Assembly: GCA_022843925.1 (NCBI GenBank)
Contig: JALHMS010000007.1
Span: 1 to 49,421 of the forward strand
Length of the DNA: 49,421 nucleotides
Direction of reading: 5' to 3'
DNA from: Burkholderiales bacterium
GTDB taxonomy: Bacteria; Pseudomonadota; Gammaproteobacteria; Burkholderiales; Ga0077523
Both the position numbers and the translations under genes were made by a program. Shown here piece after piece: positions 2,790-20,836 of the stretch. The number at the start of each line of letters is the position of its first letter. Within the stretch, counting starts at the first letter, position 1. A model generated the notes under the pieces. That model was not told the origin of the DNA, did not search any database, and was given only the letters and a program-made list of their open reading frames with translations.

Positions 2790-3134
2790 AACTTCCCCTT
2801 CGCACAGGATTTTTTCTTTGCACCGGGAATGCGTCATTTCCCTGGACATCGCCCTACAATTGGGCGGTGACTGCGTCGCGCCGCGCCGCATCCCGGCACC
2901 CATTCCGGTGCATGCCGTTCTCGCGAATCACCGCTGTCATAGCGGAAACGGCACGCCCCGGAAGGAACCACGCTCCGGGGCTGAGGCGCTCCATCGATGA
3001 GCATGGTGCAGGGCAGGCTTCTTGCGCCCTGGGGGCTCCGCCGGAGCACGCCGCGGTCACACCGGGCACTGCAACGTCCGGCGCATCACGTGCAGGCAAC
3101 TTCCCATCGGTCATCCTGGCAGGAGAGAGATCAA
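2790..3134. other. intergenic leader region of the PQQ dehydrogenase gene
   Basis: No convincing gene. An A/T-rich patch near 2810-2860 contains a TACAAT sequence (2855-2860) that could serve as a -10 element for the dehydrogenase operon, but no good -35 is seen at the right distance. The region ends in a strong Shine-Dalgarno, AGGAGAGAG, at 3121-3129, which sets the dehydrogenase start at 3135. The long leader of about 270 bases after the TACAAT leaves room for regulation that I cannot specify. Confidence 0.4.
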
Positions 3135-4853
3135 ATGCAGACGAAGAACATGCGGCACCCGGGCATTCTGTCGAGCGCACTCTGCGCGACACTGCTCGCA
3201 GCAGGCGCGGTGCAAGCGGAGCCGGTCCATACCCCGGTGACGGACAAGATGCTGCTCGAAGCCCACAAGGAAGCCAGCAACTGGCTGATGGCCGGGCGCG
3301 ACTACGCCGGCACGCGGTACAGCCCGCTCGCCAAGGTCAACACGAAGTCGGTCAAGCGACTGGTCCCCGTGTATTCGTTCGCGCTCGGCACCCTCGACGC
3401 GCAGAACACCACGCCCATCGTCGTCGACGGGATCATGTACGTCACGGCATCGCACGGAAAGATCTACGCCGTGAACGCCGCGACGGGTCAGGAACTCTGG
3501 AGCTACTCGCATCCGCTGCCCGACAACATCGGCAAGATGATGTGCTGTGACGTGGGCAACCGCGGCGCCGCGGTGTACGAGGACAAGGTGTTCTACGCGA
3601 CGCCCGACTCGCACGTGATCGCCCTCGATCGCGAGACCGGCAAGGTCGTCTGGGACGTCGTCATCGGCGACTGGACGAAGGCGCAGACCATGACCGTGGC
3701 TCCGCTCATCGTGAAGGGCAAGGTCGTCGTCGGGATGTCCGGCGCCGAGTACCCGACGCGCCTCTGGATCGACGCCCTCGACGCCAACACCGGCGCGCAG
3801 GTGTGGCGCCGTTACACGATCCCGGAACCGCACGAGCCTGGTGGTGACACCTGGGGCGACAAGGATCCCGACGCAGGGAAGTACGGTGGCGGCTCCACGT
3901 GGATCACCGGCTCGTACGACCCCGATCTCGACATCCTGTACTGGAGCACCGGCAACCCGAACCCCGACTGGGACGGCATGGGGCGCATCGGTGACAACCT
4001 CTACACGAACTCCACGCTGGCCCTGAACCCCGACGACGGCGAGATCAAGTTCCACTACCAGTACACGCCCTGGGACGTCTGGGACTTCGACGGCGTGAAC
4101 GAGACGATCCTCGCGAACGTCAACGGCAAGAAGGTCTGGCTGCACGGCGACCGCAACGGCTTCCTCTACAACATCGATCGCACGAACGGCAAGTTCAACT
4201 GGGCGAAGGAGATCTCGAAGGTGAACTGGGCAACCGGCTTCACCGAGGAGGGCCGCCCCATCGTCGACCAGACGAAGGTGCCCACCTACGAGAACAAGGC
4301 CATGAACGTGTGCCCGGCCTCGGAAGGCGGCAAGTGGTGGAACCCCATGAGCTACAGCCCGGTGAGCAAGATCGTCGTGATCCCGAGCCGCGAGATCTGC
4401 GTCGACATCCTGGCGGGCAAGGCCGAGCGGGTCGAGGGCAAGTACAACCTCGGCATCGCCGAAGCCGACTGGATCAAGGGCTACGGTCAGCTGGTGGGCT
4501 TCGACGTGACGACAGGCGAGAAGGTGTGGACGGTCAAGGCCCCCTCGCCCTTCACGAGCGGCGTCATGACCACCGGCGGCGGGCTCGCCTTCGCGGGGAC
4601 GCCGGAGGGTGAATTCAAGGCCTTCGACATCCGCACCGGCGAGGAACTCTGGTCCTACCAGACCGGCTCCGGCATGGTCGGCAGCCCGGTCAGCTTCTCG
4701 ATCGACGGCAAGCAGTACATCGCCGTGCCGTCGGGCTGGGGCGGCTGGACGGGTTGGGCCACCTGGGGCGGCAAGGGCGGCGCCCCGCATCTGAAGAACA
4801 TGCGCAAGGGCGGCATCGTCCACGTGTTCGCGCTGTTCGAACCCAAGAAGTAA
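3135..4853 (+). CDS. PQQ-dependent alcohol/methanol dehydrogenase, lanthanide-type active site
   Basis: A 572-residue periplasmic quinoprotein. The start at 3135 follows AGGAGAGAG and gives a clean Sec signal peptide cleaved near residue 28 (AGAVQA-EP). The body is an eight-bladed propeller with repeated W-docking motifs (for example TGEELWSYQTGSG). Vicinal cysteines C137-C138 match the disulfide ring over PQQ. The active-site segment is WDVWDFDGVNE, with the catalytic base D317 and a second aspartate D319; the second Asp, replaced by Ala in calcium-dependent MxaF, marks the XoxF/ExaF/PedH lanthanide enzymes. There is no fused heme domain, so electrons should leave through the cytochrome c encoded 71 bp downstream. 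The substrate could be methanol, ethanol or another primary alcohol; sequence alone does not decide. No pqq biosynthesis genes occur in the window. Confidence 0.9.
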   Translation: MQTKNMRHPGILSSALCATLLAAGAVQAEPVHTPVTDKMLLEAHKEASNWLMAGRDYAGTRYSPLAKVNTKSVKRLVPVYSFALGTLDAQNTTPIVVDGIMYVTASHGKIYAVNAATGQELWSYSHPLPDNIGKMMCCDVGNRGAAVYEDKVFYATPDSHVIALDRETGKVVWDVVIGDWTKAQTMTVAPLIVKGKVVVGMSGAEYPTRLWIDALDANTGAQVWRRYTIPEPHEPGGDTWGDKDPDAGKYGGGSTWITGSYDPDLDILYWSTGNPNPDWDGMGRIGDNLYTNSTLALNPDDGEIKFHYQYTPWDVWDFDGVNETILANVNGKKVWLHGDRNGFLYNIDRTNGKFNWAKEISKVNWATGFTEEGRPIVDQTKVPTYENKAMNVCPASEGGKWWNPMSYSPVSKIVVIPSREICVDILAGKAERVEGKYNLGIAEADWIKGYGQLVGFDVTTGEKVWTVKAPSPFTSGVMTTGGGLAFAGTPEGEFKAFDIRTGEELWSYQTGSGMVGSPVSFSIDGKQYIAVPSGWGGWTGWATWGGKGGAPHLKNMRKGGIVHVFALFEPKK

Positions 4854-4924
4854 TCACCGCAAGCAAGTACGCTGGCACGCCGGGGGCACGCATCACGCCC
4901 CCGGACAGCATCTCGACGATCTCC

Positions 4925-5284
4925 ATGAAAACGACAATCACCCTGCTTACCTTCTTGATCGCCGCCGCGCCCGCCATGGCCGCGGACGCCATCGTGAATC
5001 CGCTATCGCCCGACGCGGAAGTCATCGCGGCGGGCCGCAAGCTCTACCACAGCGCCGGCTGCATCGCCTGCCACGGCAACAATGCCCGGGGTGCGGTGGG
5101 ACCCGACCTCACCGACGACGAATGGCTTCGCAAGCCCTCCGACGAGATGATCTTCAACACCATCCGCAACGGTCGCACCGGGACGGCGATGTCCGGCTTC
5201 TCCGGCGACATGACCGAAGAGCAGACCTGGCAGATCATCACCTGGCTGAAGGACGAGAACGCGAAGCGCAAGGCGCCGAAGTAG
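4925..5284 (+). CDS. class I cytochrome c, probable acceptor of the PQQ dehydrogenase
   Basis: A 119-residue periplasmic monoheme cytochrome. The N-terminus is a Sec signal peptide cleaved near residue 20 (APAMA-AD). The heme-binding motif CIACH lies at about residues 46-50 and the distal methionine ligand is probably the Met in TAMSGF near residue 92. The start at 4925 was chosen because it gives the signal peptide directly. It lies 71 bp behind the quinoprotein gene on the same strand, the usual arrangement of an electron acceptor of the XoxG/ExaB role, although it is shorter than many cytochromes cL. Partnership is inferred from position. Confidence 0.88.
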   Translation: MKTTITLLTFLIAAAPAMAADAIVNPLSPDAEVIAAGRKLYHSAGCIACHGNNARGAVGPDLTDDEWLRKPSDEMIFNTIRNGRTGTAMSGFSGDMTEEQTWQIITWLKDENAKRKAPK

Positions 5285-8017: not shown

Positions 8018-8386
8018 GTGGCGAAGACAATCATGGTGGTGGACGACTCCGCGAGCCTGCGACAGGTCGTGGCCATCGCGCTGAAGGGCGCGGGCTACGA
8101 CGTCGTCGAGGGCTCGGACGGCAAGGACGCGCTCACCAAGCTGGACGGCCGCAAGATCCACTTGATCGTGAGCGACGTGAACATGCCCAACATGGACGGC
8201 ATCTCGTTCGTGAAGGCGGTCAAGGCGAACCCGAACTACAAGTTCACGCCCGTCGTGATGCTCACGACCGAGAACCAGGAAGGCAAGATGATGGAGGGCA
8301 AGGCGGCCGGCGCGAAAGCTTGGATCGTCAAACCCTTCAAGCCTCCGGAGCTGCTCGACGCCGTCTCCCGTCTCGTCCTTCCCTGA
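8018..8386 (+). CDS. cheY: CheY-like single-domain response regulator
   Basis: A 122-residue receiver domain with nothing attached. The acidic pocket D9-D10, the phosphoacceptor D53 in SDVNMPNMDG, the Thr in MLTTEN and the Lys in IVKPFKP are all present. It starts with GTG behind AAGGGAGAAAG. It lies between the first MCP and the STAS gene, so it is the expected phosphorylation target of the CheA encoded at 8684. Its downstream partner, flagellar switch or otherwise, is not encoded here. Confidence 0.92.
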   Translation: MAKTIMVVDDSASLRQVVAIALKGAGYDVVEGSDGKDALTKLDGRKIHLIVSDVNMPNMDGISFVKAVKANPNYKFTPVVMLTTENQEGKMMEGKAAGAKAWIVKPFKPPELLDAVSRLVLP

Positions 8387-8402: not shown

Positions 8403-8687
8403 ATGGACGAGAACACGCTCACCATCGACGGCGAGTTCGGCATCTACCGCGTCGCCGAGTTGAAACCCCAGATCCTGGCCCACGTGATCGACATCGACGA
8501 GCCGGCGCTGGCACTCGGCAACGTCACCGAGATCGACGCCGCGGGTCTCCAGCTGCTCCTCTTCGCACGTCGCGAGGCGGCAAACCTGGGGAAGCGGCTC
8601 CGCATCGGCAGCGCCAGCCCGGCCGTGGAGGAAGTCCTGCACGTCGCGGGCCTCTCCGCCGAAGCGCTCGAGGAGGCTGTCCCGTGA
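8403..8687 (+). CDS. STAS-domain protein of the chemotaxis operon
   Basis: A 94-residue single STAS domain (SpoIIAA/anti-sigma-antagonist fold). The loop that carries the phosphorylatable Ser or Thr in classical anti-anti-sigma factors (D-S-S-G type) reads [10 protein letters not shown] here, so both hydroxyl positions are Ala. It therefore probably works as a docking or scaffold module and not as a phosphoswitch. Its stop overlaps the GTG start of cheA by four bases, implying translational coupling. Similar stand-alone STAS proteins are found in some proteobacterial che operons; the role is not known from sequence. Confidence 0.82.
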
Positions 8688-10870
8688 ACGAATACGAACA
8701 GGCACAGCAGACCTTCTTCGAGGAGAGCCGCGACATGCTGCGGCAGATCGAGGATGCCCTCCTCGCCCTCGAATCCAACACCCACGACGACGAGACGCTG
8801 AACGGTCTCTTCCGTGCCGCCCACACCATCAAGGGTTCGGCCGGTCTCTTCGGCTTCGACCGCATCGGCAGCTTCACCCACGAGGTGGAGACGGTGCTCG
8901 ACCGGCTGCGCGCCGGCGAGATCGCGCTGAACGGGGACCTCGCGGCCCTGCTCCTGGAGAGCGGCGACCACATCGGCCACCTGCTCGCAGAAACCGCCGA
9001 CGGCAGCGATCAACCGGAGACCGATGCGGCCGGTGCGGCACTGAAATCGCGTCTCCTTGCATGGTGCCCTTCCCCCGGCATCGGCAAGGTCGCGGTATCC
9101 ACGCCATCGGCACCCGCGGTCGCGTCCCCCGAACGCCCCTGGCACATCGCGGTCGACTTCGGTCCGAGCATCTTCCGCGACGGCATGGACCCGCTGTCGT
9201 TCATCCGCTACCTCGGCACCAAGGGCGACGTCATCGGCGTGACCACGCGCATCGACGCGATGCCCGCGGCGGACGCGTTCGATCCCGAGGTCTGCCATCT
9301 CGGTTTCGACATCCTGCTCGAGGCGCAGTGCACGAAGGCGGACCTCACGGCAGTCTTCGACTTCGTGAAGGACGACTGCGAGCTTCGCATCACCGCGCCC
9401 GACGCCGAGGTCGAACGCTGGATCGGTGTTCTGCAGGGCATGCCCGCCCACGGCAAGCGGATCGGCGAGATGCTGGTCAACTGCGGCGCCGTGACGCAGC
9501 ACGAGCTGACCCGCGCGCTGTCGACGCAGCAGGACACCGATGGCGTCGCGCCGCCCATCGGCGCGCTGCTGGTCGCCCAGAACTCGGTCCCGGACCAGGT
9601 GCTGCAGGTGGCGGTCACCCGCCAGCGGGATCAGCGCACCGAGGAGAGCCGGTTCATCCGCGTGCAGGCGGACAAGCTCGACAGCCTCATCACGCTGGTC
9701 GGCGAACTGGTGATCGCGGGCGCCGGCGCCAATCTTCTCGCCCGCCGGGCCGGCGAACCGCGCCTCCTCGAATCGACGCAGGTCATCACCGATCTCGTGG
9801 AAGAGATCCGCAACGGCGCCCTGCAGATGCGGATGGTGCAGATCGGCGAGACGTTCAACCGGTTCCGGCGGGTGGTGCGCGACGTGAGCCGCGAACTCGG
9901 CAAGGAGATCGATCTCGAGATCTCCGGCGCCGATACCGAACTGGACAAGTCGGTGGTCGAGAAGATCGCCGACCCGCTGATGCACCTCGTCCGCAACGCG
10001 ATGGACCACGGCATCGAGATGCCGGACGTCCGCACGGCCAGGGGCAAGGCGCCGGGCGGGCTGATGCGTCTCAATGCGTTCCACGATTCCGGCAGCATCG
10101 TCATCGAGGTCATCGACGACGGCCGCGGTCTGGATCGCGACCGGATCCTGCAGAAGGCCTGGGAGCGCGGACAGGTGCCCGCCAACACGGAGCTGCCGGA
10201 CGACGAGGTCTTCGACCTCATCTTCACTGCCGGCTTCTCCACGGCCGAGAAGGTGACGAGCCTGTCCGGTCGCGGCGTCGGCATGGACGTCGTCCGCCGC
10301 AACATCGAGGCGCTGCGCGGCACCGTGAAACTGTCGAGCCGACCCGGCGAAGGCACGGTCGTCTCGATCCGCCTGCCGCTCACCCTCGCGATCATCGACG
10401 GCTTCCTGGTGTCGGTCGGGCCGGCCTCCTACGTGGTGCCGCTCGACATGGTCGTCGAGTGCATCGAGCTGCCGGAGAACACGCCCAACGGTGCGAGCTA
10501 CCTCAACCTTCGAGGGGAGGTACTTCCGTTCCTGCGCCTGCGCGACGTCTTCGGCATCGAGGCACCGCCGCCGGTGCATCACAACGTCGTCGTGGTACGC
10601 AACGGCACCAGCCACGCCGGCCTCGTCGTCGACCGGCTGATGGGCGAGTTCCAGACGGTGATCAAGCCGCTCGGCAAGTTGTTCAGGAATCTTCAGGGCA
10701 TCGGCGGTTCCACGATCCTCGGCACCGGGGAAGTGGCACTCATCCTCGACGTACAGGCGCTGATCGACAGCGCCACCAGAAATGCGGCCAGACAGGACGG
10801 CACGACGACGCGGGAACACACCGCCGAGTCGGCGTTCGGCGACGCCGCCACATCCAGCACGGAGAATTGA
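8684..10870 (+). CDS. cheA: chemotaxis histidine kinase CheA
   Basis: A 728-residue kinase. The N-terminal Hpt (P1) domain carries the phosphorylated H47 in [12 protein letters not shown] middle segment (about residues 145-300) includes the CheA-typical stretch [20 protein letters not shown]. The P3 dimerisation helices follow. The ATPase domain shows the N box around H434-N438 ([10 protein letters not shown]), the G1 box DDGRGLD and the G2 segment GRGVGMDVV, and the last 130 residues form the CheW-like P5 domain. The GTG start overlaps the STAS stop by four bases, and the next MCP follows after two bases. It should phosphorylate the CheY and CheB of this operon. Confidence 0.95.
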
Positions 10871-10872
10871 AC

Positions 10873-13695
10873 ATGGCTAACAGAACCGGCATCGGATTCG
10901 GCATCACGGCGGCGCTTCTCATCGCGACTGCCGCCATCGGCACGAACAGCCTGGAATCGGTGGGAACCGGGGCAGCCGCCACGGCCGCCAGCCGGATCGC
11001 CACGGCAGACGCGTTGCGGCAATGGCGCGAGGCGGCACTCGAACGGGCCGCCGCCGTACGCAGCGGCAGTCGCGACTCCGTCGAGACCGCATCGGCGCGG
11101 GCCGGTGAGGCCGTTGCCCAGCTGGCTGCCACCGACCCCGGAAGCGCAGCGCGCTGGCAGACCACCGAAGCCCAGGTCGCCGCGGCCGCGCTGGATGCGC
11201 AGAGCGCCGGCAAGTCGTCCACCTTCGGAAGTGCGCACGCCGCGCTGATGGCAACCTCGCTCGAAGCCGCGACCACGCTGAAGCGCGGCGCCGACGAGGC
11301 GAAGGCCGACACCACCGCCGCGGCCGGCACGGCGCGCCTCTGGCTGATTCTGCTCGCCGTCGCCGGCGTCGCCGTCGCCATCGCCGGCGGCGTGATGGGC
11401 GCCCTGGCAGGCGGAGGTCGTCAGCGTGCCGTCGCGGATACCGCGAACTCCCTGGCCAATGGCAACGTGGACATCCCGATCGACTCCGGCACCGACGAGG
11501 CGCTCATCGCACTCGCACGGGTCCGCGACAGCATCAAGGCGCTGCACGCGGCGCACGTGGAGGTCGCCCGGGCCCATCTCGCGGACGGCGCCATCGATCA
11601 GCGCATCCCGACGACGAACCTGCCGGGGATCTTCGGGCAGGTGGCCGAGGTGACCAACCGCCACGTGCAGAACCACATCGATGTGAAGATGGAGGTCGTA
11701 AAGCTGATCACCGCGTATGCGGCGGGTGACTTCAGCCAGCCGATGACCCGGCTGCCGGGGCTCAAGGCGCAGATCACCGCCGCCATGGACAAGACCCGCG
11801 AGGCGCTCAGCGCCGCCGCGGAGGCCGCGGTGACCAGCATGCAAGTGAGGGATGCCCTCCACAACGCGACCACCAACGTGATGATCGCCGACAACGACGG
11901 CCGGATCACCTACTGGAACGCGTCGCTGCAGGAGATGATGACCGAGGCGCAGGCCGACATCCGCAAGGATCTGCCGCAGTTCGACGTGAAGACCGTCATC
12001 GGCATGAATTTCGACCAGTTCCACAAGAACCCCGCGCATCAGCGCAACCTGCTCGGCGGACTGCGCAGCACGCACCGCGCGCAGATCGTGGTGGGCGGCC
12101 GCACGTTCCAGCTGGTGGCGACCCCCATCATCAACGGCGACGGCGAGCGCTTCGGCACCGTCGTGGAGTGGAAGGACCGCACGAAGGAGATCGCCCTCGA
12201 GAACGAAGCGAACACGACGCGCAACGCCCTCGACCAGGTGACGACCAACGTGATGATCGCCGACAACGACGGTGTGATCCGCTACTGGAACACCTCGCTC
12301 CAGGAGATGCTCACGGGCGCCGAGGCCGACATCCGGAAGGTCCTGCCGCAGTTCAACTCCCGCGCGATCATCGGCACCAACTTCGACCAGTTCCACAAGA
12401 ATCCGGCGCATCAGCGCAATCTGCTGGGTCAGCTGCGGACGACGCACCGTGCGCAGATCGAGGTCGGCGGCCGCACCTTCCTGCTCATCGCGAATCCGAT
12501 CATCGACAAGACCGGCAAGCGGCTCGGCTCGGTGGTCGAGTGGCGGGATCGCACGATGGAAGTGGCCGTCGAGCACGAGATCAATGCCATCGTGGACGCC
12601 GCCGCGCGAGGCGACTTCACGCGCCGCGTCGGTCTGGAGAACAAGGACGCCTTCTTCAAGGGGCTGGCGGAACGCCTCAACACGCTGCTCGAGACGAGCG
12701 ACACGGGCCTGAACGAAGTGGCCCGCGTGCTGAGTGCGCTGGCCCAGGGCGACCTCACGCAGCGCATCACACGCGAGTACCAGGGCACGTTCGGCCAGCT
12801 GAAGGAGGACTGCAACGCAACCTCCGAGCGGCTCGGCCAGGTGATCTCCGAAGTGCGCGTGTCGGCGGATTCCCTGACGGGGGCGGCAGAACAGGTGAGT
12901 GCCACGGCCCAGTCCCTCTCGCAGGGCGCCAGCGAACAGGCCGCGAGCGTCGAGGAGACCAGCGCATCGGTGGAGGAGATGTCGGCCTCGATCACGCAGA
13001 ACTCCGAGAACGCCAAGGTGACCGACGGGATGGCGACGAAGGCGGCCAGCGAGGCCTCCGAGGGCGGCGAGGCGGTCACGCGGACCGTGGCTGCCATGAA
13101 GCAGATCGCCGGCAAGATCGGGATCATCGACGACATCGCCTACCAGACCAACCTGCTCGCGCTCAACGCCGCCATCGAGGCGGCGCGGGCCGGCGAGCAC
13201 GGCAAGGGATTCGCCGTCGTCGCGGCGGAAGTGCGCAAGCTCGCGGAACGCAGCCAGGTGGCGGCCCAGGAGATCGGGACCCTCGCCGGCAGCAGCGTCG
13301 ACATGGCGGAGCGTGCCGGCAAGCTGCTCGAGGAGATGGTGCCGAGCATCCGCAAGACCTCCGATCTCGTGCAGGAGATCACCGCCGCGTCCGAGGAGCA
13401 GTCCACGGGCGTGTCGCAGATCAACAGCGCGATGAACCAGCTGAACCAGGCCACGCAGCAGAACGCGTCCGCCTCCGAGCAGCTGGCGGCGACCGCCGAG
13501 GAGATGAGCGGCCAGGCCGAGCAGCTCCAGCAGCTCATGGCCTTCTTCCAGGTGGCCGCCGGTCAGAGCGCGGCGGAACTGCAGCGCGTCCCGGCAGCGG
13601 ATGGCGGTAGGCACCGCAGCCCGAAGCCCGCGGCCAGCCTGCGCCGTACCGGCACCGATGGCGGCGTGGATGAGTCCTTCTTCAAGCAGTTCTAG
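10873..13695 (+). CDS. methyl-accepting chemotaxis protein with two tandem PAS domains
   Basis: A 940-residue receptor starting at 10873, three bases after the cheA stop codon. A first membrane segment (about residues 6-25) and a second (about 155-178) bracket a roughly 125-residue Ala-rich periplasmic part. Several HAMP-like segments follow, then two closely similar PAS-like domains at about 327-437 and 451-560, both containing NVMIADNDG and [17 protein letters not shown]. Another HAMP-like segment leads into the signalling domain, whose tip is around Q758-N760 ([20 protein letters not shown]). PAS domains in such receptors often bind heme, FAD or small ligands; the cofactor here is not evident. 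The two PAS copies also match at DNA level, pointing to internal duplication. Confidence 0.93.
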
Positions 13696-13705
13696 GAGTC
13701 GCGCG

Positions 13706-14230
13706 ATGACCCGTACAGCCGAAGCGGCGACGGTCTCGGCCGTCGCCCGACAGTTCCTCACGTTCCAGCTCGGCGGCGAGATGTACGCCGTGGGCATCCT
13801 GCGCATCAAGGAGATCATCGAGTACGGCGCACTCACGGCCGTGCCGATGATGCCCACGTTCATCCGCGGCGTGATCAATCTGCGCGGATCGGTGGTGCCG
13901 GTCGTGGACCTCCGGGCGCGGTTCGGTGCCGGGCCCACGGCGATCGGCCGACGCACCTGCATCGTGATCGTCGAGATCGAGGCCGACGGCGAGTCCCAGG
14001 TGGTCGGGGTGCTGGTCGATGCCGTGCACGAAGTGCTCGACATCGCCGATGCGGACATCGAACCCGCACCGTCGTTCGGAACGCAGATCCGTCCGGACTT
14101 CGTGGCCGGCATGGGCAAGGTCGCGGGCAATTTCGTGATCCTGCTGGATCTCGCGCGCGTCCTCGCCGTCGACGAGATGGCATCGGTGGCCGCCGCAGCG
14201 GATGCCGATGCCCTCCCGCCCGTCCACTGA
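13706..14230 (+). CDS. cheW: chemotaxis coupling protein CheW
   Basis: A 174-residue soluble CheW-domain protein that bridges receptors to CheA. The core motifs are present: FQLGGEMYAVGILRIKEII, then MPTFIRGVINLRGSVVPVVDLR, then VGVLVDAVHEVLDI. The ATG at 13706 follows AGGAG, which overlaps the MCP stop, so the two are translated in series. It ends six bases before the cheR start. Confidence 0.94.
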   Translation: MTRTAEAATVSAVARQFLTFQLGGEMYAVGILRIKEIIEYGALTAVPMMPTFIRGVINLRGSVVPVVDLRARFGAGPTAIGRRTCIVIVEIEADGESQVVGVLVDAVHEVLDIADADIEPAPSFGTQIRPDFVAGMGKVAGNFVILLDLARVLAVDEMASVAAAADADALPPVH

Positions 14231-14236
14231 GCCGCC

Positions 14237-15067
14237 GTGAGCACCCTGGTCCTCGGTACCGCCATCAAGGACGCGGAGTTCGAGGCGCTGCGCGCCATGC
14301 TCTACCGCGAAGCCGGCATCACGCTGTCGGAGCAGAAGAAGCCGATGGTGTGCGGCCGGCTCGGCAAGCGGCTGGTCAAGCTCGGGCTCGACAGCTACGG
14401 CGCGTACCTCCAGCGCATCGACGGCGGGCGCGATCCCGCGGAACTGCAGACCGCGATCGATCTGCTCACCACCAACGAGACGTACTTCTTCCGGGAGCCG
14501 AAGCACTTCGACTGGCTCCGCAATCGCATGAAGGCAGCGCCTCCGGGACGCGCCTTCCGCATCTGGAGTGCCGCATGTTCGAGCGGAGAAGAGCCCTACA
14601 CGATCGCGATGGTGGCCGCCGACACGCTGGGGGACAGGCCGTGGGAGGTGCACGCGTCGGACATCTCGACGCGGGTGCTGGAATCGGCGCGGGCCGGGCT
14701 GTACCCGATGGAGCGGGCGGAGCACATCCCGAAGGCGCTTCTCGAGCGCTACTGCCTGCGGGGCAGCGGACCGTACGCGAACCAGTTCCTCATCTCGAAG
14801 TCGCTTCGCGCCCGGATCCAGTTCCGGCAGGTCAACCTGCAGCGACCCTTCCCGCAGGCCGCCCCCTTCGACGTGATCTTTCTGCGGAACGTGATGATCT
14901 ATTTCGACGCCGTCACGAAGAAGTCGCTCGTGGAGCGACTTGCGCAGTGTCTCGTCCCGGATGGACGGTTGGTGATCGGCCACTCGGAGAGTCTGAACGG
15001 GATCACCTCGGCCTTGCACGCCGAGATCCCGACGATCTACGCCCGGACCCGGTCCGACGCGGGATGA
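14237..15067 (+). CDS. cheR: chemotaxis protein methyltransferase CheR
   Basis: A 276-residue S-adenosylmethionine-dependent glutamate methyltransferase that modifies receptors for adaptation. The N-terminal all-helical domain is followed by the Rossmann part with the SAM motif WSAACSSGEEPYTIAM and the typical catalytic-domain segment VNLQRPFPQAAPFDVIFLRNVMIYF. It starts with GTG and its stop overlaps the cheD start (ATGA). Neither receptor in the operon ends with the NWETF-like tether, so CheR probably acts without pentapeptide docking. Confidence 0.95.
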   Translation: MSTLVLGTAIKDAEFEALRAMLYREAGITLSEQKKPMVCGRLGKRLVKLGLDSYGAYLQRIDGGRDPAELQTAIDLLTTNETYFFREPKHFDWLRNRMKAAPPGRAFRIWSAACSSGEEPYTIAMVAADTLGDRPWEVHASDISTRVLESARAGLYPMERAEHIPKALLERYCLRGSGPYANQFLISKSLRARIQFRQVNLQRPFPQAAPFDVIFLRNVMIYFDAVTKKSLVERLAQCLVPDGRLVIGHSESLNGITSALHAEIPTIYARTRSDAG

Positions 15068-15579
15068 GTGCAGCGCGGGAGCTGTCCGGCCAGGATGTCT
15101 TCCTGATGCCGGGCGATCTCTTCTTCGGCGGCGCACCCGCGAAGGTGGCAACACTGCTGGGGAGCTGCGTGTCGATCGTGCTCTGGAACCCGAAGCGGCG
15201 CATCGGCGGCATGTGTCACTACCTGCTGCCCACCGGACGGCCGCGGACCGACGGGAAACCCGGCGCCTATGCCGACGCCGCGATGGCGAAACTGTTCGAC
15301 GCCGTCACGCGCGCCGGGAGCCGCCCCGCCGAGTACCGCACGACGCTGGTGGGCGGCGGACACATGTTCCCGCTCCTGCATCGTGCATCCATCCCCGAGG
15401 TCGGGGAACGCAATGTGGCCGCCGGCCGGGCCCTGCTCGCGCACTACCGGTTCACGCTGCACCGCGAGGACACCGGCGGCGAGGGCCACCGGCACGTCGA
15501 TTTCGATCTCGCCACCGGCGAGGTGAACGTCCGTTTCGAGCTGCAGCCGGGTGCGGCCCGCTGCCGCTCTCAGAGCTGA
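15064..15579 (+). CDS. cheD: chemoreceptor glutamine deamidase CheD
   Basis: A 171-residue deamidase that converts receptor Gln to Glu and tunes adaptation. The catalytic Cys is C35 ([11 protein letters not shown]) and the His is H52 (GGMCHYLLP); the spacing of 17 residues equals that of Thermotoga CheD (C27/H44). The start at 15064 overlaps the cheR stop by four bases. It sits immediately before cheB, the usual order in proteobacterial clusters. Confidence 0.94.
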
Positions 15580-15586
15580 GGAACGC

Positions 15587-16696
15587 ATGGGTACGAAGAC
15601 GAAGGTCCTGGTGGTCGACGACTCGGCCGTCGTGCGGAAGGTGCTCACCGATCAGCTGGCCCGTGATCCGTCGCTCGAGGTGATCGCTGCCGTGGCCGAT
15701 CCGCTGCTTGCGATCGAGCGCATGAAGATCACCTGGCCGGACGTGATCGTCCTCGACGTCGAGATGCCGCGGATGGACGGCATCACGTTCCTGCGCAAGA
15801 TCATGGCCGAGAAGCCGACGCCGGTCGTCATCTGCTCGACGCTCACCGAGAAGGGCGCCGAGACGACGATGCAGGCGCTGTCCGCCGGTGCCGTGAGTTT
15901 CGTGACCAAGCCGAAGATCGGGCTGAAGGACTTCCTGACCGAATCGGCCGCCGAACTGATCGGCGCCGTGAAGGCCGCCGCGAAGGTCAATGCGAACGCC
16001 ATCCGGCGGGGCCCCGCCCCCATGGCGACGCCGACGCCGAAACTGTCGGCGGACGCCGTCCTGCCGTCGGGCGCCCAGGCCATGGCGCGCACGACGGAAC
16101 GATTCATCGCGATCGGCACATCGACGGGTGGCACGCAGGCCCTGGAGGAGGTCCTGATGGCGCTGCCCCGGGTGAGCCCCGGCATCGTCATCGTGCAGCA
16201 CATGCCCGAGAAGTTCACCGCCTCGTTCGCGCAGCGTCTGGACAGCCTCTGCCAGATCGACGTGAAGGAGGCCGTCCACGGGGACCGCGTCATGCCGGGC
16301 CGTGCGCTCATCGCCCCCGGCGGCAAGCACATGCTGGTGCAGCGGAGCGGCGCGTACTACCAGGCCAACGTGATCGACGGGCCGGTCGTGAACCGGCATC
16401 GCCCCTCCGTCGATGTCCTGTTCCGCTCGGTGGCCCAGCAGGCGGGACGCAACTGCCTGGGCGTGATCATGACCGGCATGGGCGACGACGGCGCCCGGGG
16501 CATGAAGGAACTGCACGACGTCGGCGCCAGGACCATCGCGCAGGACGAGGCCACCTGCGTGGTCTACGGGATGCCGAAGGAGGCCGTGAAGCTCGGTGCG
16601 GTGGACCATATCGTCCCACTGTCCGAAATCGCCCGCGAGATTCTCCGGTTCGCCGGTCAGGAACTCGCCATTCAACGCAGCGAGGTGCGCCTGTGA
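15587..16696 (+). CDS. cheB: chemotaxis response regulator methylesterase CheB
   Basis: A 369-residue two-domain protein. The N-terminal receiver has D11-D12 and phosphoacceptor D57 in [10 protein letters not shown]. The C-terminal methylesterase carries the Ser nucleophile in [10 protein letters not shown], the His in [13 protein letters not shown] and the Asp in MTGMGDDGA. Phosphorylation by CheA should activate receptor demethylation. The start at 15587 follows a GAGGAA-type Shine-Dalgarno. Its TGA stop overlaps the GTG start of the BLUF gene. Confidence 0.95.
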
Positions 16697-17115
16697 ATCT
16701 AGTCGAACTGATCTACGCCAGCCGGATGACGGCGCCCATGTCGATGTCCGAGATCGTGGATCTTCTGGACAACGCACGCACGCACAACACGCGCGAAGGT
16801 CTGACCGGGATGCTCACATTCGGGTCGGAGCGCTTCCTGCAGGCGATCGAGGGACCGGCCGACGCCGTCAATCGGCTCTATGGAAGGATTCTCCAGGACA
16901 CCCGCCACGAGGGCGTGATGCTGCTGGGCTACCGCCCCGTGCCCCGTCGGAGGTTCAGTGCGTGGTCGATGGGATTCTTCGCCTACGGCGCGGACGGATC
17001 GCTCGCCCGGAGCGGTCTGCCCGACGACAAGTTCGAGCCGGCATCGATGTCGCTGGACCAGGCGTTGGCGCTCCTCGCGGACATGGCGACGCAGATGGAG
17101 TTCGCGACGACCTGA
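16693..17115 (+). CDS. BLUF-domain blue-light receptor (FAD-binding), last gene of the che operon
   Basis: A 140-residue short BLUF protein. All photocycle residues known from AppA are present with a constant offset of 13: Y8 (AppA Y21), H31 (H44), N32 (N45), Q50 (Q63), W91 (W104) and M93 (M106). Blue light rearranges the hydrogen bonds between flavin, Tyr and Gln and shifts the C-terminal helices, which here are short (about residues 110-140). There is no fused output domain, so it must act through a partner protein. The GTG start overlaps the cheB stop by four bases, which ties its translation to the chemotaxis genes and suggests that light is an input to this pathway. The partner is unknown. 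Confidence 0.93.
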
Positions 17116-17262
17116 GCCCTGCGCAGACCCTCCTGGACACGCGGTTCTGTCGAACGCCAGGCGGTGAATCGGGACCTGCACGGAACCCGACCGACCCGAC
17201 AGGGTCTCTAGCCGGCGCATGGCATGCAGTCCCGCGCGACCTCATCCCTCCAGGAGCCCATC

Positions 17263-17601
17263 ATGAACACGAAAGTTGCCGGTATCGACCGCAGGCATTT
17301 TCTGCGCGTGGGGTCGGCGCTGGCCGTCACCACGGCGGCAGCCCTGACCTCGCGTCGCGCCTCCGCCCAGGCCGCAGCAAAGCTCGACGAGAAGGACGCC
17401 CAGGCGATCGGCCTCGGGTACCGCCACGACAGCACCAAAGTGGACAAGGCCAAGTTCCCCAAGCACGCTGCCACCCAGGCCTGTTCGAACTGCCAGTTCT
17501 ACGCGGGCAAGGCGAGCGATCCGTGGGGCGCCTGTCCGCTCTTCCAGGGAAAACAGGTGAACGCCAAGGGGTGGTGCAGCGCCTGGGCGAAGAAGGCCTG
17601 A
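17263..17601 (+). CDS. high-potential iron-sulfur protein (HiPIP)
   Basis: A 112-residue periplasmic [4Fe-4S] electron carrier. The N-terminus is a Tat signal (RRHFLRVGSA, hydrophobic stretch, cleavage near ASA-QA at residue 35). The mature part has the four-cysteine pattern C-x2-C, then C-P, then C-S-A-W (ACSNCQFYAG, GACPLFQG, GWCSAW). HiPIPs shuttle electrons from the bc1 complex to photosynthetic reaction centres or oxidases. It begins 147 bp after the BLUF gene and ends in a clear terminator, so it may have its own promoter. GGAG at 17252-17255 is the Shine-Dalgarno. Confidence 0.94.
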   Translation: MNTKVAGIDRRHFLRVGSALAVTTAAALTSRRASAQAAAKLDEKDAQAIGLGYRHDSTKVDKAKFPKHAATQACSNCQFYAGKASDPWGACPLFQGKQVNAKGWCSAWAKKA

Positions 17602-17706: not shown

Positions 17707-18531
17707 TCAGGCGAGCGTCTGACGACGGCGGCGGGCGAGTGCGAGCATCACCAAACCCCCTGCGGTCAGCGCCCACGTTTCGGGCTCGGGCACCGGCGCG
17801 AGTGTGATCGACGCACTGAAGGCCCGATTGGCGATCAACGTGGCAGCATCCTCCGTGTACTGGCTGATGTAGCTCGCGCCACCGACGACGACGGAGTACG
17901 TGCCGGGTCCGAGTAGGAACTGCGCCGTGACACGGCCATCGGGGTTGCCGTCGCCGACGAGATCGGTCACGCCATCATCGCTCACGTCGATGCCGTTGCC
18001 GTCGAAGGCGTGGCCCAGATGCACGACCTCAGCCGACTCGCCGGCATCGTTGCCGAGCCAGAAACTGTCGAGGGCGCGCCAGGCGCCTTCCTTGTCGCCC
18101 ACACGCGAGCCGTTCTCGACGAAGTACGGCGATGTCGGCAGGAACCCGGGATGGTTCGCGACGTAGCCGGGTGCATCGGAACCCTCGTGCGCCAGGTTCG
18201 GTACGACACCCGAGTACAGCGAGAAGCCCGGAATCAGATCTCCCAGAACCGACCCGGCGCCCGATTGCGCAGCCACGTCGATGGTGACGTTGGCAGCCTC
18301 CGTGAGCGTGAACCTCAGGAAGCGACCGCGATGGCTGTCGCCCCAGTCGGCGTCCGCGGCATCGGCCCAGCCGTAGTTCGACCGCACGCGCTGCTCGTTG
18401 AGGGTGTACGTGCCGACGCCATCGAACGTGCCGTTGATGATGAAGTCGCGGCCCGTGTAGCTGACGTGGGCGGAAGCGGCAGAAGCGGCGGCAAGCAGGA
18501 CGAGACCTGCAATAGGACGGACGGGATGCAT
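17707..18531 (-). CDS. PEP-CTERM sorting-domain protein
   Basis: A 274-residue exported protein. The N-terminal signal peptide is cleaved near residue 21 (ASA-HV). The middle is beta-rich and Asp/Gly-rich (for example FDGNGIDVSDDG, DLVGDGNPDG), resembling pre-peptidase-like surface domains. The C-terminus is a textbook PEP-CTERM: VPEPETW, a hydrophobic helix (ALTAGGLVMLALA) and a basic tail RRRRQ, recognised by exosortase EpsH/XrtA systems and linked to exopolysaccharide. No exosortase gene is in the window. It is transcribed away from regB; the shared 377-bp region holds two RegA-like palindromes. Confidence 0.9.
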   Translation of the reverse strand: MHPVRPIAGLVLLAAASAASAHVSYTGRDFIINGTFDGVGTYTLNEQRVRSNYGWADAADADWGDSHRGRFLRFTLTEAANVTIDVAAQSGAGSVLGDLIPGFSLYSGVVPNLAHEGSDAPGYVANHPGFLPTSPYFVENGSRVGDKEGAWRALDSFWLGNDAGESAEVVHLGHAFDGNGIDVSDDGVTDLVGDGNPDGRVTAQFLLGPGTYSVVVGGASYISQYTEDAATLIANRAFSASITLAPVPEPETWALTAGGLVMLALARRRRQTLA

Positions 18532-18908: not shown

Positions 18909-20279
18909 ATGTCGAATCCGCATGCTCTCCGTCAAACTGTCACCCCGGTCGACGCCCCGCCGGCAGTCACCCCGGTCAACGCCGCTCCCGCAGTCACCCC
19001 GGTCGACGCCGCTCCCGCGGGTCCCGCCACGGATGACACCCGCGACCGACGGCATCTGCGTCGTCTCGTGACGCTTCGCTGGATCGCGCTGGCGACGATG
19101 GCGGGGGCCATTGCGATCGTCCAGTTCGCGTTCGAGATCGATCTGCCGATGACGCCGCTCACGGTGGTCGTTCTGGCTGCGGTCGGGCTCAACGGCTTCA
19201 CCCGGTGGCGCATCTCCCGCCCGTGGCCCGTGCGTCCCCGCGAGGTACTTGCGCAGTTGCTGGCGGACACGGGGTTCCTCGCCGGAGTCCTGTATTTCAC
19301 CGGCGGCTGGTCGAATCCGTTCGTGTCGCTGTTCCTGCTGCCGCTCGTCATCGCCGCCACCGTCATGCCGCCGCGACACGCCTGGACGATGGCGGCGGTC
19401 ACTTTCGTCTGCTACACCCTCCTCGGGTTCTTTCACGTGCCGCTGCCTCACGTGCACCACGGCAACGACGACGGCTTCGGTTTGCACGTGCTCGGGATGT
19501 GGGTGAGCTTCGTGCTGTCGGCCGGCGTGATCGCCTGGTTCGTCGTACGCATGGCGGGCTCCCTGCGCGAGCGGGACAGCGAGCTCGCGGCGGCGCGGGA
19601 ACGGGCGCTTCGCGATCAGCACGTACTCGCACTCGGCACGCTCGCCGCGGGCGCCGCGCACCAGCTCGGTACGCCGTTGGGAACGATGGCGGTCCTGCTC
19701 CGCGATCTCGAGCACGATTTCCGAAACGACCCGGACCTCGGCGCGGAGCTGCGCCGGGTGCGTGAGCAAGTGGACCAGTGCAAGTCGATCATCTCGGACC
19801 TCGTCGCCGCCGCCGGACAGACCCGCGGCGAGGACGGGCGCGCCGAGGGGATCGACACCTTCCTCACCACGACGGTGGAGTCCTGGCGCCTGCAGCGCCC
19901 GGGCATCCCGCTATCGCTGCACCTCGACGGCTCGACCCCCCCGCCGCGGATACTGGCGGAGCGCACACTCGGGCACACGCTCTTGACGCTTCTGAACAAC
20001 GCGGCCGACGCATCGGCGGACGGGATCGAGATGCAGGGCTCCTGGACAGCCGATCAGCTCACCGTCGAGATCCGCGACCGGGGGGCGGGACTGGAACCGG
20101 ACACGCTGTCGAGGGTGGGGCGCCTCCCGATCACGACCAAGCCGGACGGCCACGGTGTCGGCCTGCTGATCGCGAATGCAGCGCTCGAGCGTTTCGGCGG
20201 GCGCGTCACCCTGACCAACCGAGCGGACCGCGGCGCCTGCACCCGGATCGAACTGCCCCTCGCCGCTCTGGCCGCATGA
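18909..20279 (+). CDS. regB: redox-sensing histidine kinase RegB/PrrB type
   Basis: A 456-residue inner-membrane kinase. Six hydrophobic segments (about residues 55-215) precede the kinase core. Between them lies the ubiquinone-binding signature GGWSNPF at residues 132-138. The H box GAAHQLGTPLGT holds the phosphorylated H251, and C291 lies exactly 40 residues later, the same spacing as H225/C265 of Rhodobacter capsulatus RegB, where the Cys is the redox switch. The ATPase part has NNAADAS, DRGAGLEPD and KPDGHGVGLLIA. The N-terminus carries three 9-residue repeats of the VTPVDAAPA type (residues 11-37), which is unusual. The regA gene overlaps its stop. Confidence 0.93.
   Translation: MSNPHALRQTVTPVDAPPAVTPVNAAPAVTPVDAAPAGPATDDTRDRRHLRRLVTLRWIALATMAGAIAIVQFAFEIDLPMTPLTVVVLAAVGLNGFTRWRISRPWPVRPREVLAQLLADTGFLAGVLYFTGGWSNPFVSLFLLPLVIAATVMPPRHAWTMAAVTFVCYTLLGFFHVPLPHVHHGNDDGFGLHVLGMWVSFVLSAGVIAWFVVRMAGSLRERDSELAAARERALRDQHVLALGTLAAGAAHQLGTPLGTMAVLLRDLEHDFRNDPDLGAELRRVREQVDQCKSIISDLVAAAGQTRGEDGRAEGIDTFLTTTVESWRLQRPGIPLSLHLDGSTPPPRILAERTLGHTLLTLLNNAADASADGIEMQGSWTADQLTVEIRDRGAGLEPDTLSRVGRLPITTKPDGHGVGLLIANAALERFGGRVTLTNRADRGACTRIELPLAALAA
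18939..19019 (+). repeat. three 27-bp in-frame repeats in the regB N-terminal coding region
   Basis: Three consecutive 27-bp units encode VTPVDAPPA, VTPVNAAPA and VTPVDAAPA. The units are nearly identical in DNA, indicating recent slippage expansion. The encoded Pro/Ala segment is cytoplasmic and precedes the first membrane helix. Confidence 0.85.
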
Positions 20280-20836
20280 TGAACGCTCCCGATCCGGCAC
20301 CCGCTGCGCCCGACTGGTTGCTGCTGGTCGACGACGACGACACCTTCCGGACCGTACTGGCCCGGGCACTTTCGCGGCGGGGCTTCGACGTGCGGGCAGC
20401 GGCCGACGTTTCCGACGCGCTCCGCCTGGCATCGGAATCGCCGCCGAGCCATGCGGTGGTGGATCTCCGCATGCCAGGGGCATCGGGGCTGGAGCTGGTC
20501 GAGGCACTGCGGCGGCGAGCGCCGGACGCCCGGATCGTGGTGCTCACCGGCTACGCGAGCATCGCCACTGCGGTGAGCGCCATGAAGCTCGGCGCGACGC
20601 ACTATCTTGCGAAACCGGCCGACGCCGATCAGATCGTGGCGGCCTTCGGGGATGGCCCGCCGCTCCTCGCGCTGGAGGACACCGCCCGCCCCCTGTCGGT
20701 GGATCGACTGGAGTGGGAGCACATCCAGCGGGTGCTCGGCGAGCACGACGGCAACATCTCCGCGACTGCCCGCGCTCTCGGCATGCACCGCCGCACCCTG
20801 CAGCGGAAGCTCGGCAAGCACGCCCCCCGCGAGTAG
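20276..20836 (+). CDS. regA: redox response regulator RegA/PrrA type
   Basis: A 186-residue two-domain regulator. The receiver has the acidic cluster D19-D22, phosphoacceptor D63 (VVDLRMPGASGLE) and Lys in YLAKPAD. After a proline-containing linker (TARPLSVDRLEWEHIQRVL) comes the Fis-like helix-turn-helix NISATARALGMHRRTLQRKL, the hallmark of RegA/PrrA/ActR/RoxR proteins. Its start overlaps the regB stop (ATGATGA), so expression is coupled. Family members control respiration, photosynthesis and nitrogen or carbon fixation in response to quinone redox state. Confidence 0.94.
   Translation: MMNAPDPAPAAPDWLLLVDDDDTFRTVLARALSRRGFDVRAAADVSDALRLASESPPSHAVVDLRMPGASGLELVEALRRRAPDARIVVLTGYASIATAVSAMKLGATHYLAKPADADQIVAAFGDGPPLLALEDTARPLSVDRLEWEHIQRVLGEHDGNISATARALGMHRRTLQRKLGKHAPRE

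What the first reader, a model, noticed from the sequence alone, without database searches (positions are those of the whole stretch)
16693..17115. A complete BLUF photoreceptor is translationally coupled to a full chemotaxis operon
The sequence shows a 140-residue BLUF protein with every AppA photocycle residue (Y8, H31, N32, Q50, W91, M93; constant offset 13). Its GTG start overlaps the cheB stop by four bases in an operon with cheY, STAS, cheA, two MCPs, cheW, cheR and cheD. BLUF proteins without an output domain need a partner, and no EAL/GGDEF or repressor gene lies beside it. The proposal is that blue light modulates this chemosensory array, a phototactic input by a soluble flavoprotein and not by a sensory rhodopsin.
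Basis: partly seen in the sequence, partly recalled or inferred. Interest (0 to 1): 0.85.

Follow-up and report, generated by a model that had tools for sequence, protein, structure and literature searches.

The report
Blue-light sensor in oxygen-sensing chemosensory operon
A small flavin-type blue-light sensor gene is built into a chemotaxis-like gene set with a probable oxygen-sensing receptor in a photosynthetic bacterium, and some related bacteria keep the pairing, so light is probably an input to that sensory system, though perhaps not to swimming.

Summary
Window 16693-17115 encodes a 140-residue BLUF protein (Pfam 101.6 bits) with a PixD-like predicted fold; its GTG start overlaps the cheB stop by 4 bases. 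The pairing is not confined to one strain: BLUF lies directly after an orthologous cheB in 9 of 73 genomes examined, in five families of the order. Seven of the nine linked BLUFs form one clade and the other two pair. Two results change the reading. (1) The genome has two adjacent reaction-centre genes, so it is an anoxygenic phototroph; 7 of 9 linked genomes have such genes against 2 of 64 unlinked (not independent of phylogeny). (2) The operon looks F7-type (Aer2/Che1-like): its main receptor is Aer2-like with two predicted haem-PAS domains and a CheR tether. A separate cheV-cheV-cheY-cheZ-cheA set exists on another contig. So "blue light modulates this chemosensory array" is supported by conservation; "phototaxis" is not established. 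Best reading: BLUF tunes an F7 array, most likely at CheB or the array core. The oxygen sensor is seen in the window's own family, not in all linked operons. Nothing was tested biochemically.

The parts
16693..17115 (+). BLUF protein, short PixD-like type, 140 aa, GTG start overlapping the cheB stop by 4 bases
   Evidence: Pfam 101.6 bits; closest solved structures Tll0078, TePixD and Slr1694 by sequence and by predicted fold, TM 0.81-0.88
15587..16696 (+). cheB, receiver plus methylesterase; its end overlaps the BLUF start
   Evidence: Pfam CheB_methylest 234.6 bits; NCBIfam CheB above cut-off
15064..15579 (+). cheD, receptor glutamine deamidase
   Evidence: NCBIfam CheD 153 bits, below the equivalog cut-off of 236
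14237..15067 (+). cheR, receptor methyltransferase
   Evidence: Pfam CheR 185.7 bits
13706..14230 (+). cheW coupling protein
   Evidence: Pfam CheW 133.3 bits on the longer ORF 13601-14230
10873..13695 (+). Aer2-like chemoreceptor with HAMP domains, two PAS domains carrying FHKNPAHQR (predicted haem ligand) and a C-terminal FFKQF matching the CheR tether motif
   Evidence: PDB Aer2 3vol E 5.4e-65 and 4hi4 2.9e-33; NCBIfam Vibrio Aer2 466 bits, below its cut-off of 1200; tether motif as given in PMC7184735
8684..10870 (+). cheA histidine kinase, with a twin R-I-G-E-x-L-V type repeat between Hpt and dimerisation domain
   Evidence: Pfam Hpt, H-kinase_dim, HATPase_c, CheW; weak MshE-related c-di-GMP motif, 30.4 bits under the cut-off of 38; repeat aligned
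8403..8687 (+). STAS-domain protein (anti-sigma-factor antagonist family)
   Evidence: Pfam STAS_2 51.9 bits; NCBIfam ant_ant_sig 36.2 bits, below cut-off
8018..8386 (+). cheY, single receiver domain
   Evidence: Pfam Response_reg 91.3 bits
6797..7954 (+). Second receptor, McpA-like by its ending GVNFF (valine in the second place of the tether motif)
   Evidence: Pfam MCPsignal 85.1 bits; C-termini compared; McpA feature from PMC7184735
17263..17601 (+). High-potential iron-sulphur protein gene downstream, context and probably not part of the unit (gap 147 bases)
   Evidence: Pfam HIPIP 89.9 bits on ORF 17224-17601; gap
18909..20836 (+). RegB-like sensor kinase (18909-20279) and RegA-like regulator (20276-20836), redox context
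   Evidence: NCBIfam ActS/PrrB/RegB 266 bits and ActR/PrrA/RegA 206 bits, both below their cut-offs of 350 and 250

Best explanation
This is an F7-type (Aer2/Che1-like) chemosensory system of an anoxygenic phototroph that has gained a PixD-like blue-light sensor. Shown by sequence: the gene content, the 4-base overlap, the cheB-BLUF pair in nine genomes of five families, purifying selection on BLUF, conserved flavin-pocket residues, an Aer2-like receptor, reaction-centre genes in the same genome. Inferred: the BLUF protein binds FAD, changes state in blue light, and by protein-protein contact changes the state of the array. The most likely contact is CheB, or the core it works on, because cheB is the neighbour that stays with BLUF when cheR, cheD or receptors are gone. 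In the window's family light would thereby shift the set point of an oxygen-sensing array. The output would run through CheY and perhaps STAS, to stress or metabolic adaptation more likely than directly to the flagellar motor; the McpA-like receptor leaves a route to swimming open.
For: cheB-BLUF adjacency in 9 of 73 genomes with this cheB, five families. Seven linked BLUFs form one clade (support 89, 91) and the other two pair (81); one origin of all nine not rejected, p-AU 0.67. dN/dS 0.25 and 0.24. In G247 and G070 (f13) the cheW and cheB ORFs are 6 and about 110 bases apart, leaving no room for cheR or cheD there, and the receptor shows no PAS hit and no tether, yet cheB-BLUF stays. Aer2-like receptor with both haem-PAS motifs in the window, G006 and G002. 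Reaction-centre genes in 7 of 9 linked and 2 of 64 unlinked genomes, Fisher p 7.5e-7. Separate cheV-cheV-cheY-cheZ-cheA set in the same genome.
Against: No binding, photocycle or partner was tested. 64 of 73 genomes with this cheB have no BLUF directly after it, including two phototrophs (G009, G173) and a same-genus member (G003), so BLUF is optional. The reaction-centre link is not independent of phylogeny: 1 independent pair on well-supported branches, 3 on all branches. The oxygen-sensor part is not general: the haem-PAS motifs are absent from the receptors of the linked G247 and G070 operons, and no receptor lies between cheY and BLUF in G171. In a first, simpler tree of 143 BLUFs the linked rows needed four changes of label, partly because an unlabelled duplicate of the window protein was in it. 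BLUF evolves faster than its neighbours between G000 and G006 (0.25 against 0.00-0.14) and than nearly all between G000 and G002 (cheD 0.25), which does not favour a tight fixed interface. In G171 the operon begins with a GGDEF gene, so c-di-GMP could be the route there. PMC7184735 predicts motor control for later-stage F7 systems of beta-proteobacteria. CheB as the contact rests on gene order alone.
Confidence: 0.45

Rival explanations
1. One reading: BLUF feeds an array that controls the flagellum, giving true blue-light phototaxis or photophobia.
For: Full che gene set here and flagellin genes in the genome. McpA of the F7 operon signals to the motor system in S. oneidensis, and McpA-like receptors associate with the F6 array elsewhere (PMC9855816, PMC7184735; passages). 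PMC7184735 predicts motor control by F7 in stage 3 and 4 (beta-proteobacterial) species, and the named relatives are betaproteobacterial.
Against: The operon has no cheZ; cheZ sits with two cheV, cheY and cheA on another contig. Stage 3 and 4 systems have lost Aer2 and McpA, which this operon keeps, as in stages 1 and 2 where F6 runs the motor in many species. The genome has three CheA genes.
Confidence: 0.2
2. BLUF acts through the STAS protein or CheY as a light-gated stress switch, comparable with LOV-STAS control of sigma-B in Bacillus.
For: A STAS gene is in the same operon in the window, G006, G002, G247 and G070. S. [quoted passage not shown] LOV-STAS photoreceptors enter the stressosome (PMC8508746, passages).
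Against: The nine STAS sequences aligned have D-[AGS]-A-G and no serine at the usual phospho-site (site recalled). No STAS hit was seen in the linked G171 operon.
Confidence: 0.15
3. BLUF is a passenger: it uses the operon's promoter but works with a partner elsewhere, such as c-di-GMP enzymes or a photosynthesis regulator.
For: Short BLUFs often act with distant partners (recalled). BLUF is not directly after cheB in 64 of 73 genomes. BLUF evolves faster than the che genes. The genome has a second BLUF gene.
Against: The linked BLUFs group together in the trees and stay next to cheB although other operon genes are lost. 4-base overlap with cheB in the three linked f1 genomes.
Confidence: 0.2

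Closest known systems
F7 chemosensory systems with Aer2 (P. aeruginosa, V. cholerae, S. oneidensis Che1)
   Same: [quoted passage not shown] CheR tether at the Aer2 C-terminus (PMC7184735, PMC9855816; passages)
   Different: A BLUF gene is appended after cheB; no CrsR or serine phosphatase gene among the operon genes tested; gene order differs in detail
PixD (Slr1694, Tll0078), short BLUF proteins of cyanobacteria
   Same: Same length class and predicted fold over nearly the whole chain (TM 0.81-0.88); no fused output domain
   Different: PixD partners PixE, a CheY-PATAN regulator, not an MCP/CheA/CheB array (PMC5812497, passages)
AppA of Rhodobacter sphaeroides
   Same: BLUF in an anoxygenic phototroph; redox or oxygen sensing joined to light (the latter recalled)
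   Different: AppA is an anti-repressor of photosynthesis genes with further domains (details recalled); here the oxygen sensor would be a separate receptor in an array
Ppr of Rhodospirillum centenum
   Same: Photoreceptor reported to interact with CheW in a purple bacterium (PMC5812497, passages)
   Different: PYP-phytochrome histidine kinase, not BLUF; [quoted passage not shown]

Membership tests
BLUF photoreceptors | BLUF domain with Tyr, Asn, Gln, Trp, Met around the flavin | tested here: met
   Pfam 101.6 bits; invariant Y8, N32, Q50, W91, M93; roles recalled
BLUF photoreceptors | FAD binding and 10-15 nm red shift in blue light | not testable with these tools
   Needs purified protein
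PixD-type short BLUF | About 140-150 aa, BLUF plus C-terminal helices, no output domain | tested here: met
   Predicted model mean pLDDT 86.7, residues 105-111 under 50; top PDB matches are PixD proteins
PixD-type short BLUF | PixD-PixE style oligomer and PATAN-CheY partner | not tested
   Oligomer not modelled; PATAN not searched
F7 (Aer2/Che1) chemosensory system | Aer2-like receptor with PAS/HAMP repeats | tested here: met
   NCBIfam Vibrio Aer2 model hit below its cut-off
F7 (Aer2/Che1) chemosensory system | CheR tether x-[HFYW]-x(2)-[HFYW] at the Aer2 C-terminus | tested here: met
   FFKQF in the window and G006; fitting endings in G002, G003, G009, G013, G016; none in G247 and G070
F7 (Aer2/Che1) chemosensory system | 36H receptor heptad class and F7 class of CheA | not tested
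   No class models at hand
F7 (Aer2/Che1) chemosensory system | A separate (F6) chemotaxis system elsewhere in the genome | tested here: met
   cheV-cheV-cheY-cheZ-cheA on C28; its F6 class and that it drives the motor are inferred
Flagellar phototaxis system | Photoreceptor coupled to the motor's CheA/CheY | tested here: inconclusive
   Flagellin present, but a different che set carries cheZ
Haem-PAS oxygen sensor | Haem-ligating His and conserved Trp of Aer2 PAS | tested here: met
   FHKNPAHQR and EW[KR]DRT aligned with 3vol/4hi4 in both PAS; residue roles recalled, a haem histidine also mentioned in PMC9855816; haem binding itself not tested

The most novel reading that the evidence does not exclude
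A light-and-oxygen integrating chemosensory array in anoxygenic phototrophs: a PixD-like BLUF docks on CheB (or the CheB-modified core) and resets adaptation of an Aer2 haem-PAS array in blue light, so that light changes the oxygen set point at the level of a signalling array, doing what AppA does at the level of a repressor.
Probability: 0.25. Interest if true: 0.85.

Novelty: new variant of a known kind. Interest (0 to 1): 0.62.

Why it matters
A review read in passages describes scotophobic photomovement of purple bacteria as sensed indirectly through the photosynthetic apparatus (PYP in one species being an exception), and lists PixD with a PATAN-CheY and not an MCP array (PMC5812497). The function of Aer2-type F7 systems is called unclear in PMC7184735. 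A blue-light sensor locked to such a system, mainly in phototrophs, offers a direct experimental handle on both questions. My literature searches showed no report of a BLUF gene in a che operon. Their limits: the library holds open-licence papers only; of the papers listed there I opened PMC5812497 and PMC8508746 in passages and saw the others as listings.

Tried and rejected
A chance insertion in one strain was rejected: the pair occurs in nine genomes of five families. A pseudogene was rejected: dN/dS about 0.25. A general habit of BLUF genes to sit beside che genes was not seen: one search scanned 88 BLUF loci (some of them the same gene twice; the linked loci of G000, G006 and G002 and the loci fetched by CheB left out; flanks mostly about 1.5 kb) with the window's che proteins. 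Only L020 (G013) had this cheB; L019 has a CheY-like gene on the other strand; L039, L154 and L182 have receiver-type hits, L051 a weak receptor hit. Of 37 named loci three (L105-L107) had this cheB; L113 has a receptor, and L115 (Hymenobacter) has a BLUF gene ending against a stand-alone CheB methylesterase on the other strand, followed by a CheB-CheR-PAS fusion; several others had distant receiver-type hits. In 20 further regions from 17 phototrophs of the order no such che set lay directly beside BLUF; L193 had receptors and cheW some 3-8 kb away, L196 a receiver-type hit beside BLUF, L183 the CheY-like gene of L019. A class-wide search (321 genomes, 43 with a match) gave no new linked case among the 29 loci other than the window's own. 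Plasmids: 283 records match, all under 60% identity; contexts not looked at. The reaction-centre correlation was tested on the cheB tree and is not independent of phylogeny. An earlier count (8 linked genomes) was superseded when G245 was found; that BLUF was not among the rows printed.

Rows dropped before counts: of 75 genomes with an F7-type cheB taken (60% identity or more to the window CheB, plus G276 seen at a contig end in L103), G091 and G179 were left out as partial, so n is 73; second copies in G002 (C18) and G258 were not counted, both copies of G173 were in the tree. Eleven long-branch BLUF rows and a duplicate of the window's own were dropped. One search prints only its best matches, so partial cheB copies may be missed. 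Only the stretch after cheB (about 1.2-1.5 kb, more in a few) was checked for BLUF. G171 is 68% complete, so its lack of reaction-centre genes is not firm.

Full report
WHAT IS THERE. Window 16693-17115 encodes a 140-residue protein with a full BLUF domain. The start GTG overlaps the cheB stop by four bases. The predicted structure (mean pLDDT 86.7) matches PixD proteins over nearly the whole chain (TM 0.81-0.88), so this is a short, stand-alone BLUF of the PixD kind. Y8, N32, Q50, W91 and M93 are invariant in eight cheB-linked BLUFs; H31 is not.

THE OPERON. Upstream on the same strand lie a small receptor, cheY, STAS, cheA, an Aer2-like receptor, cheW, cheR, cheD and cheB, with gaps of -4 to 16 bases from cheY to BLUF. 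The larger receptor aligns with P. aeruginosa Aer2 structures. Both of its PAS domains keep FHKNPAHQR and EW[KR]DRT, which I read as two haem-PAS oxygen sensors. Its C-terminus FFKQF fits the CheR tether motif of Aer2 receptors, and the small receptor ends GVNFF, with the valine described for McpA. By these features the operon is of the F7, Aer2/Che1 kind. Formal receptor and CheA class models were not available.

THE GENOME. Two reaction-centre (Photo_RC) genes lie side by side on contig C35; I read them as pufL and pufM and the organism as an anoxygenic phototroph. Flagellin matches occur in 12 of 12 genus members. Three CheA genes are present. The one on C28 follows two cheV, a cheY and a cheZ, so the flagellar pathway is probably there. 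A second BLUF gene lies on C5. Just downstream of the window BLUF are genes for a HiPIP and a RegB/RegA-like pair.

CONSERVATION. In the order, 132 of 399 genomes have a BLUF match, 241 of 399 a CheB match at 1e-60 or better and 47 of 399 a reaction-centre match. I examined the downstream side of the orthologous cheB in 73 genomes (74 loci, G173 with two). BLUF follows directly, on the same strand, in nine: G000, G006, G002 (family f1), G070, G247, G276 (f13), G171 (f39), G013 (f3) and G245 (f10), from an overlap to a gap of 176 bases between the matches. By equal contig lengths G006 is Ga0077532 (LNEE01000034.1), G002 is Ga0077526 (LNDV01000036.1) and G171 is JANXRW010000093.1, all betaproteobacterial MAGs. 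In a tree of 131 BLUFs the seven from f1, f13 and f39 form one clade (support 89); with G245 added support is 91, the f3 and f10 proteins pair (81), and one origin of all nine is not rejected (p-AU 0.67). A first, simpler tree of 143 rows needed four changes for the linked rows, with an unlabelled duplicate of the window protein among them. On the cheB tree the nine are also not rejected as one clade (p-AU 0.74). The trees have few columns or weak deep support.

WHAT STAYS AND WHAT GOES. In G247 and G070 (f13) the cheW and cheB ORFs are 6 and about 110 bases apart, so cheR and cheD are not there; the receptor has a four-helix sensor and HAMPs, no PAS hit, and no tether. Whether cheR or cheD lie elsewhere in those genomes was not searched. 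In G171 cheA is followed by cheR, cheB and BLUF, with a GAF-GGDEF gene in front of cheY. The cheB-BLUF pair is thus the constant part, which is why I place the most likely contact at CheB or the core it acts on. This is inference from gene order. A possible independent parallel is L115 (Hymenobacter), where a BLUF gene ends against a CheB methylesterase gene on the other strand; the other four Hymenobacter loci had no che hit.

SELECTION. Between G000 and G006 BLUF has dN/dS 0.25 (cheB 0.03, cheA 0.10, highest other regA 0.14); between G000 and G002, 0.24 (cheB 0.09, cheD 0.25). BLUF is constrained but changes faster than nearly all its neighbours.

LINK WITH PHOTOSYNTHESIS. Reaction-centre genes occur in 7 of 9 genomes with the linked BLUF and in 2 of 64 without (G009, G173); Fisher p 7.5e-7. 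BLUF genes as such are also enriched in phototrophs: excluding the eight linked genomes then known, 24 of 124 BLUF genomes have them, odds ratio 3.5. The test on the tree found one independent pair on well-supported branches and three on all, so the link may rest on few events.

READING. [quoted passage not shown] The same paper predicts motor control for later-stage F7 systems of beta-proteobacteria, which have lost both receptors. S. oneidensis Che1 may act on RpoS through an anti-sigma-factor antagonist (PMC9855816, passages). I therefore read the locus as a light input to an F7 system in phototrophs, oxygen-sensing at least in the window's family. The nine STAS proteins aligned lack the usual phospho-serine, which weakens a classical partner-switch output. 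A route to swimming through the McpA-like receptor stays open. No biochemical step is shown.

Noticed in passing
window 8684-10870, CheA residues about 255-320: CheA carries a twin repeat (RIGEMLV..CGAVT..EL..AL..Q, then PIG..LV..) like the MshE-related c-di-GMP-binding motif; below the NCBIfam cut-off (30.4 against 38). Seen in most of the F7 CheAs aligned, not in G003 nor in the two other CheAs of the window's genome.
   Followed up: partly
window 8403-8687 and eight relatives: The STAS proteins have D-[AGS]-A-G in place of D-S-S-G, so the usual phosphorylated serine (recalled) is missing.
   Followed up: partly
L095 and L096 (family f13): cheR and cheD are not in the operon, and the receptor has neither PAS domains nor CheR tether, while cheB-BLUF stays; in L095 a HisKA_2/HWE-type kinase and an ANTAR regulator lie upstream.
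   Followed up: partly
L113 6798-10441 (Thiocystis violacea): A BLUF gene follows a receptor with a FHQNPAH stretch, four-helix sensor, HAMP and CZB domains, on the same strand; a possible independent case in a purple sulphur bacterium.
   Followed up: partly
L115 9719-14773 (Hymenobacter sp. H14-R3): A BLUF gene ends against a CheB methylesterase gene on the other strand, next to a CheB-CheR-PAS fusion gene.
   Followed up: partly
L097 2604-3710 and 10479-12695 (G171): A GAF-GGDEF gene stands before cheY of the BLUF-linked che operon and an EAL-GGDEF-DUF3369 gene lies nearby on the other strand.
   Followed up: no
G000:C5:675-1067 (L002): A second BLUF gene in the same genome, near a contig end.
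   Followed up: no
window 2997-5284: PQQ-dependent dehydrogenase gene with a small cytochrome-c-like ORF behind it (read, not profile-tested).
   Followed up: no
window 17707-18531 (-): PEP-CTERM protein gene between the HiPIP and RegB-like genes.
   Followed up: no
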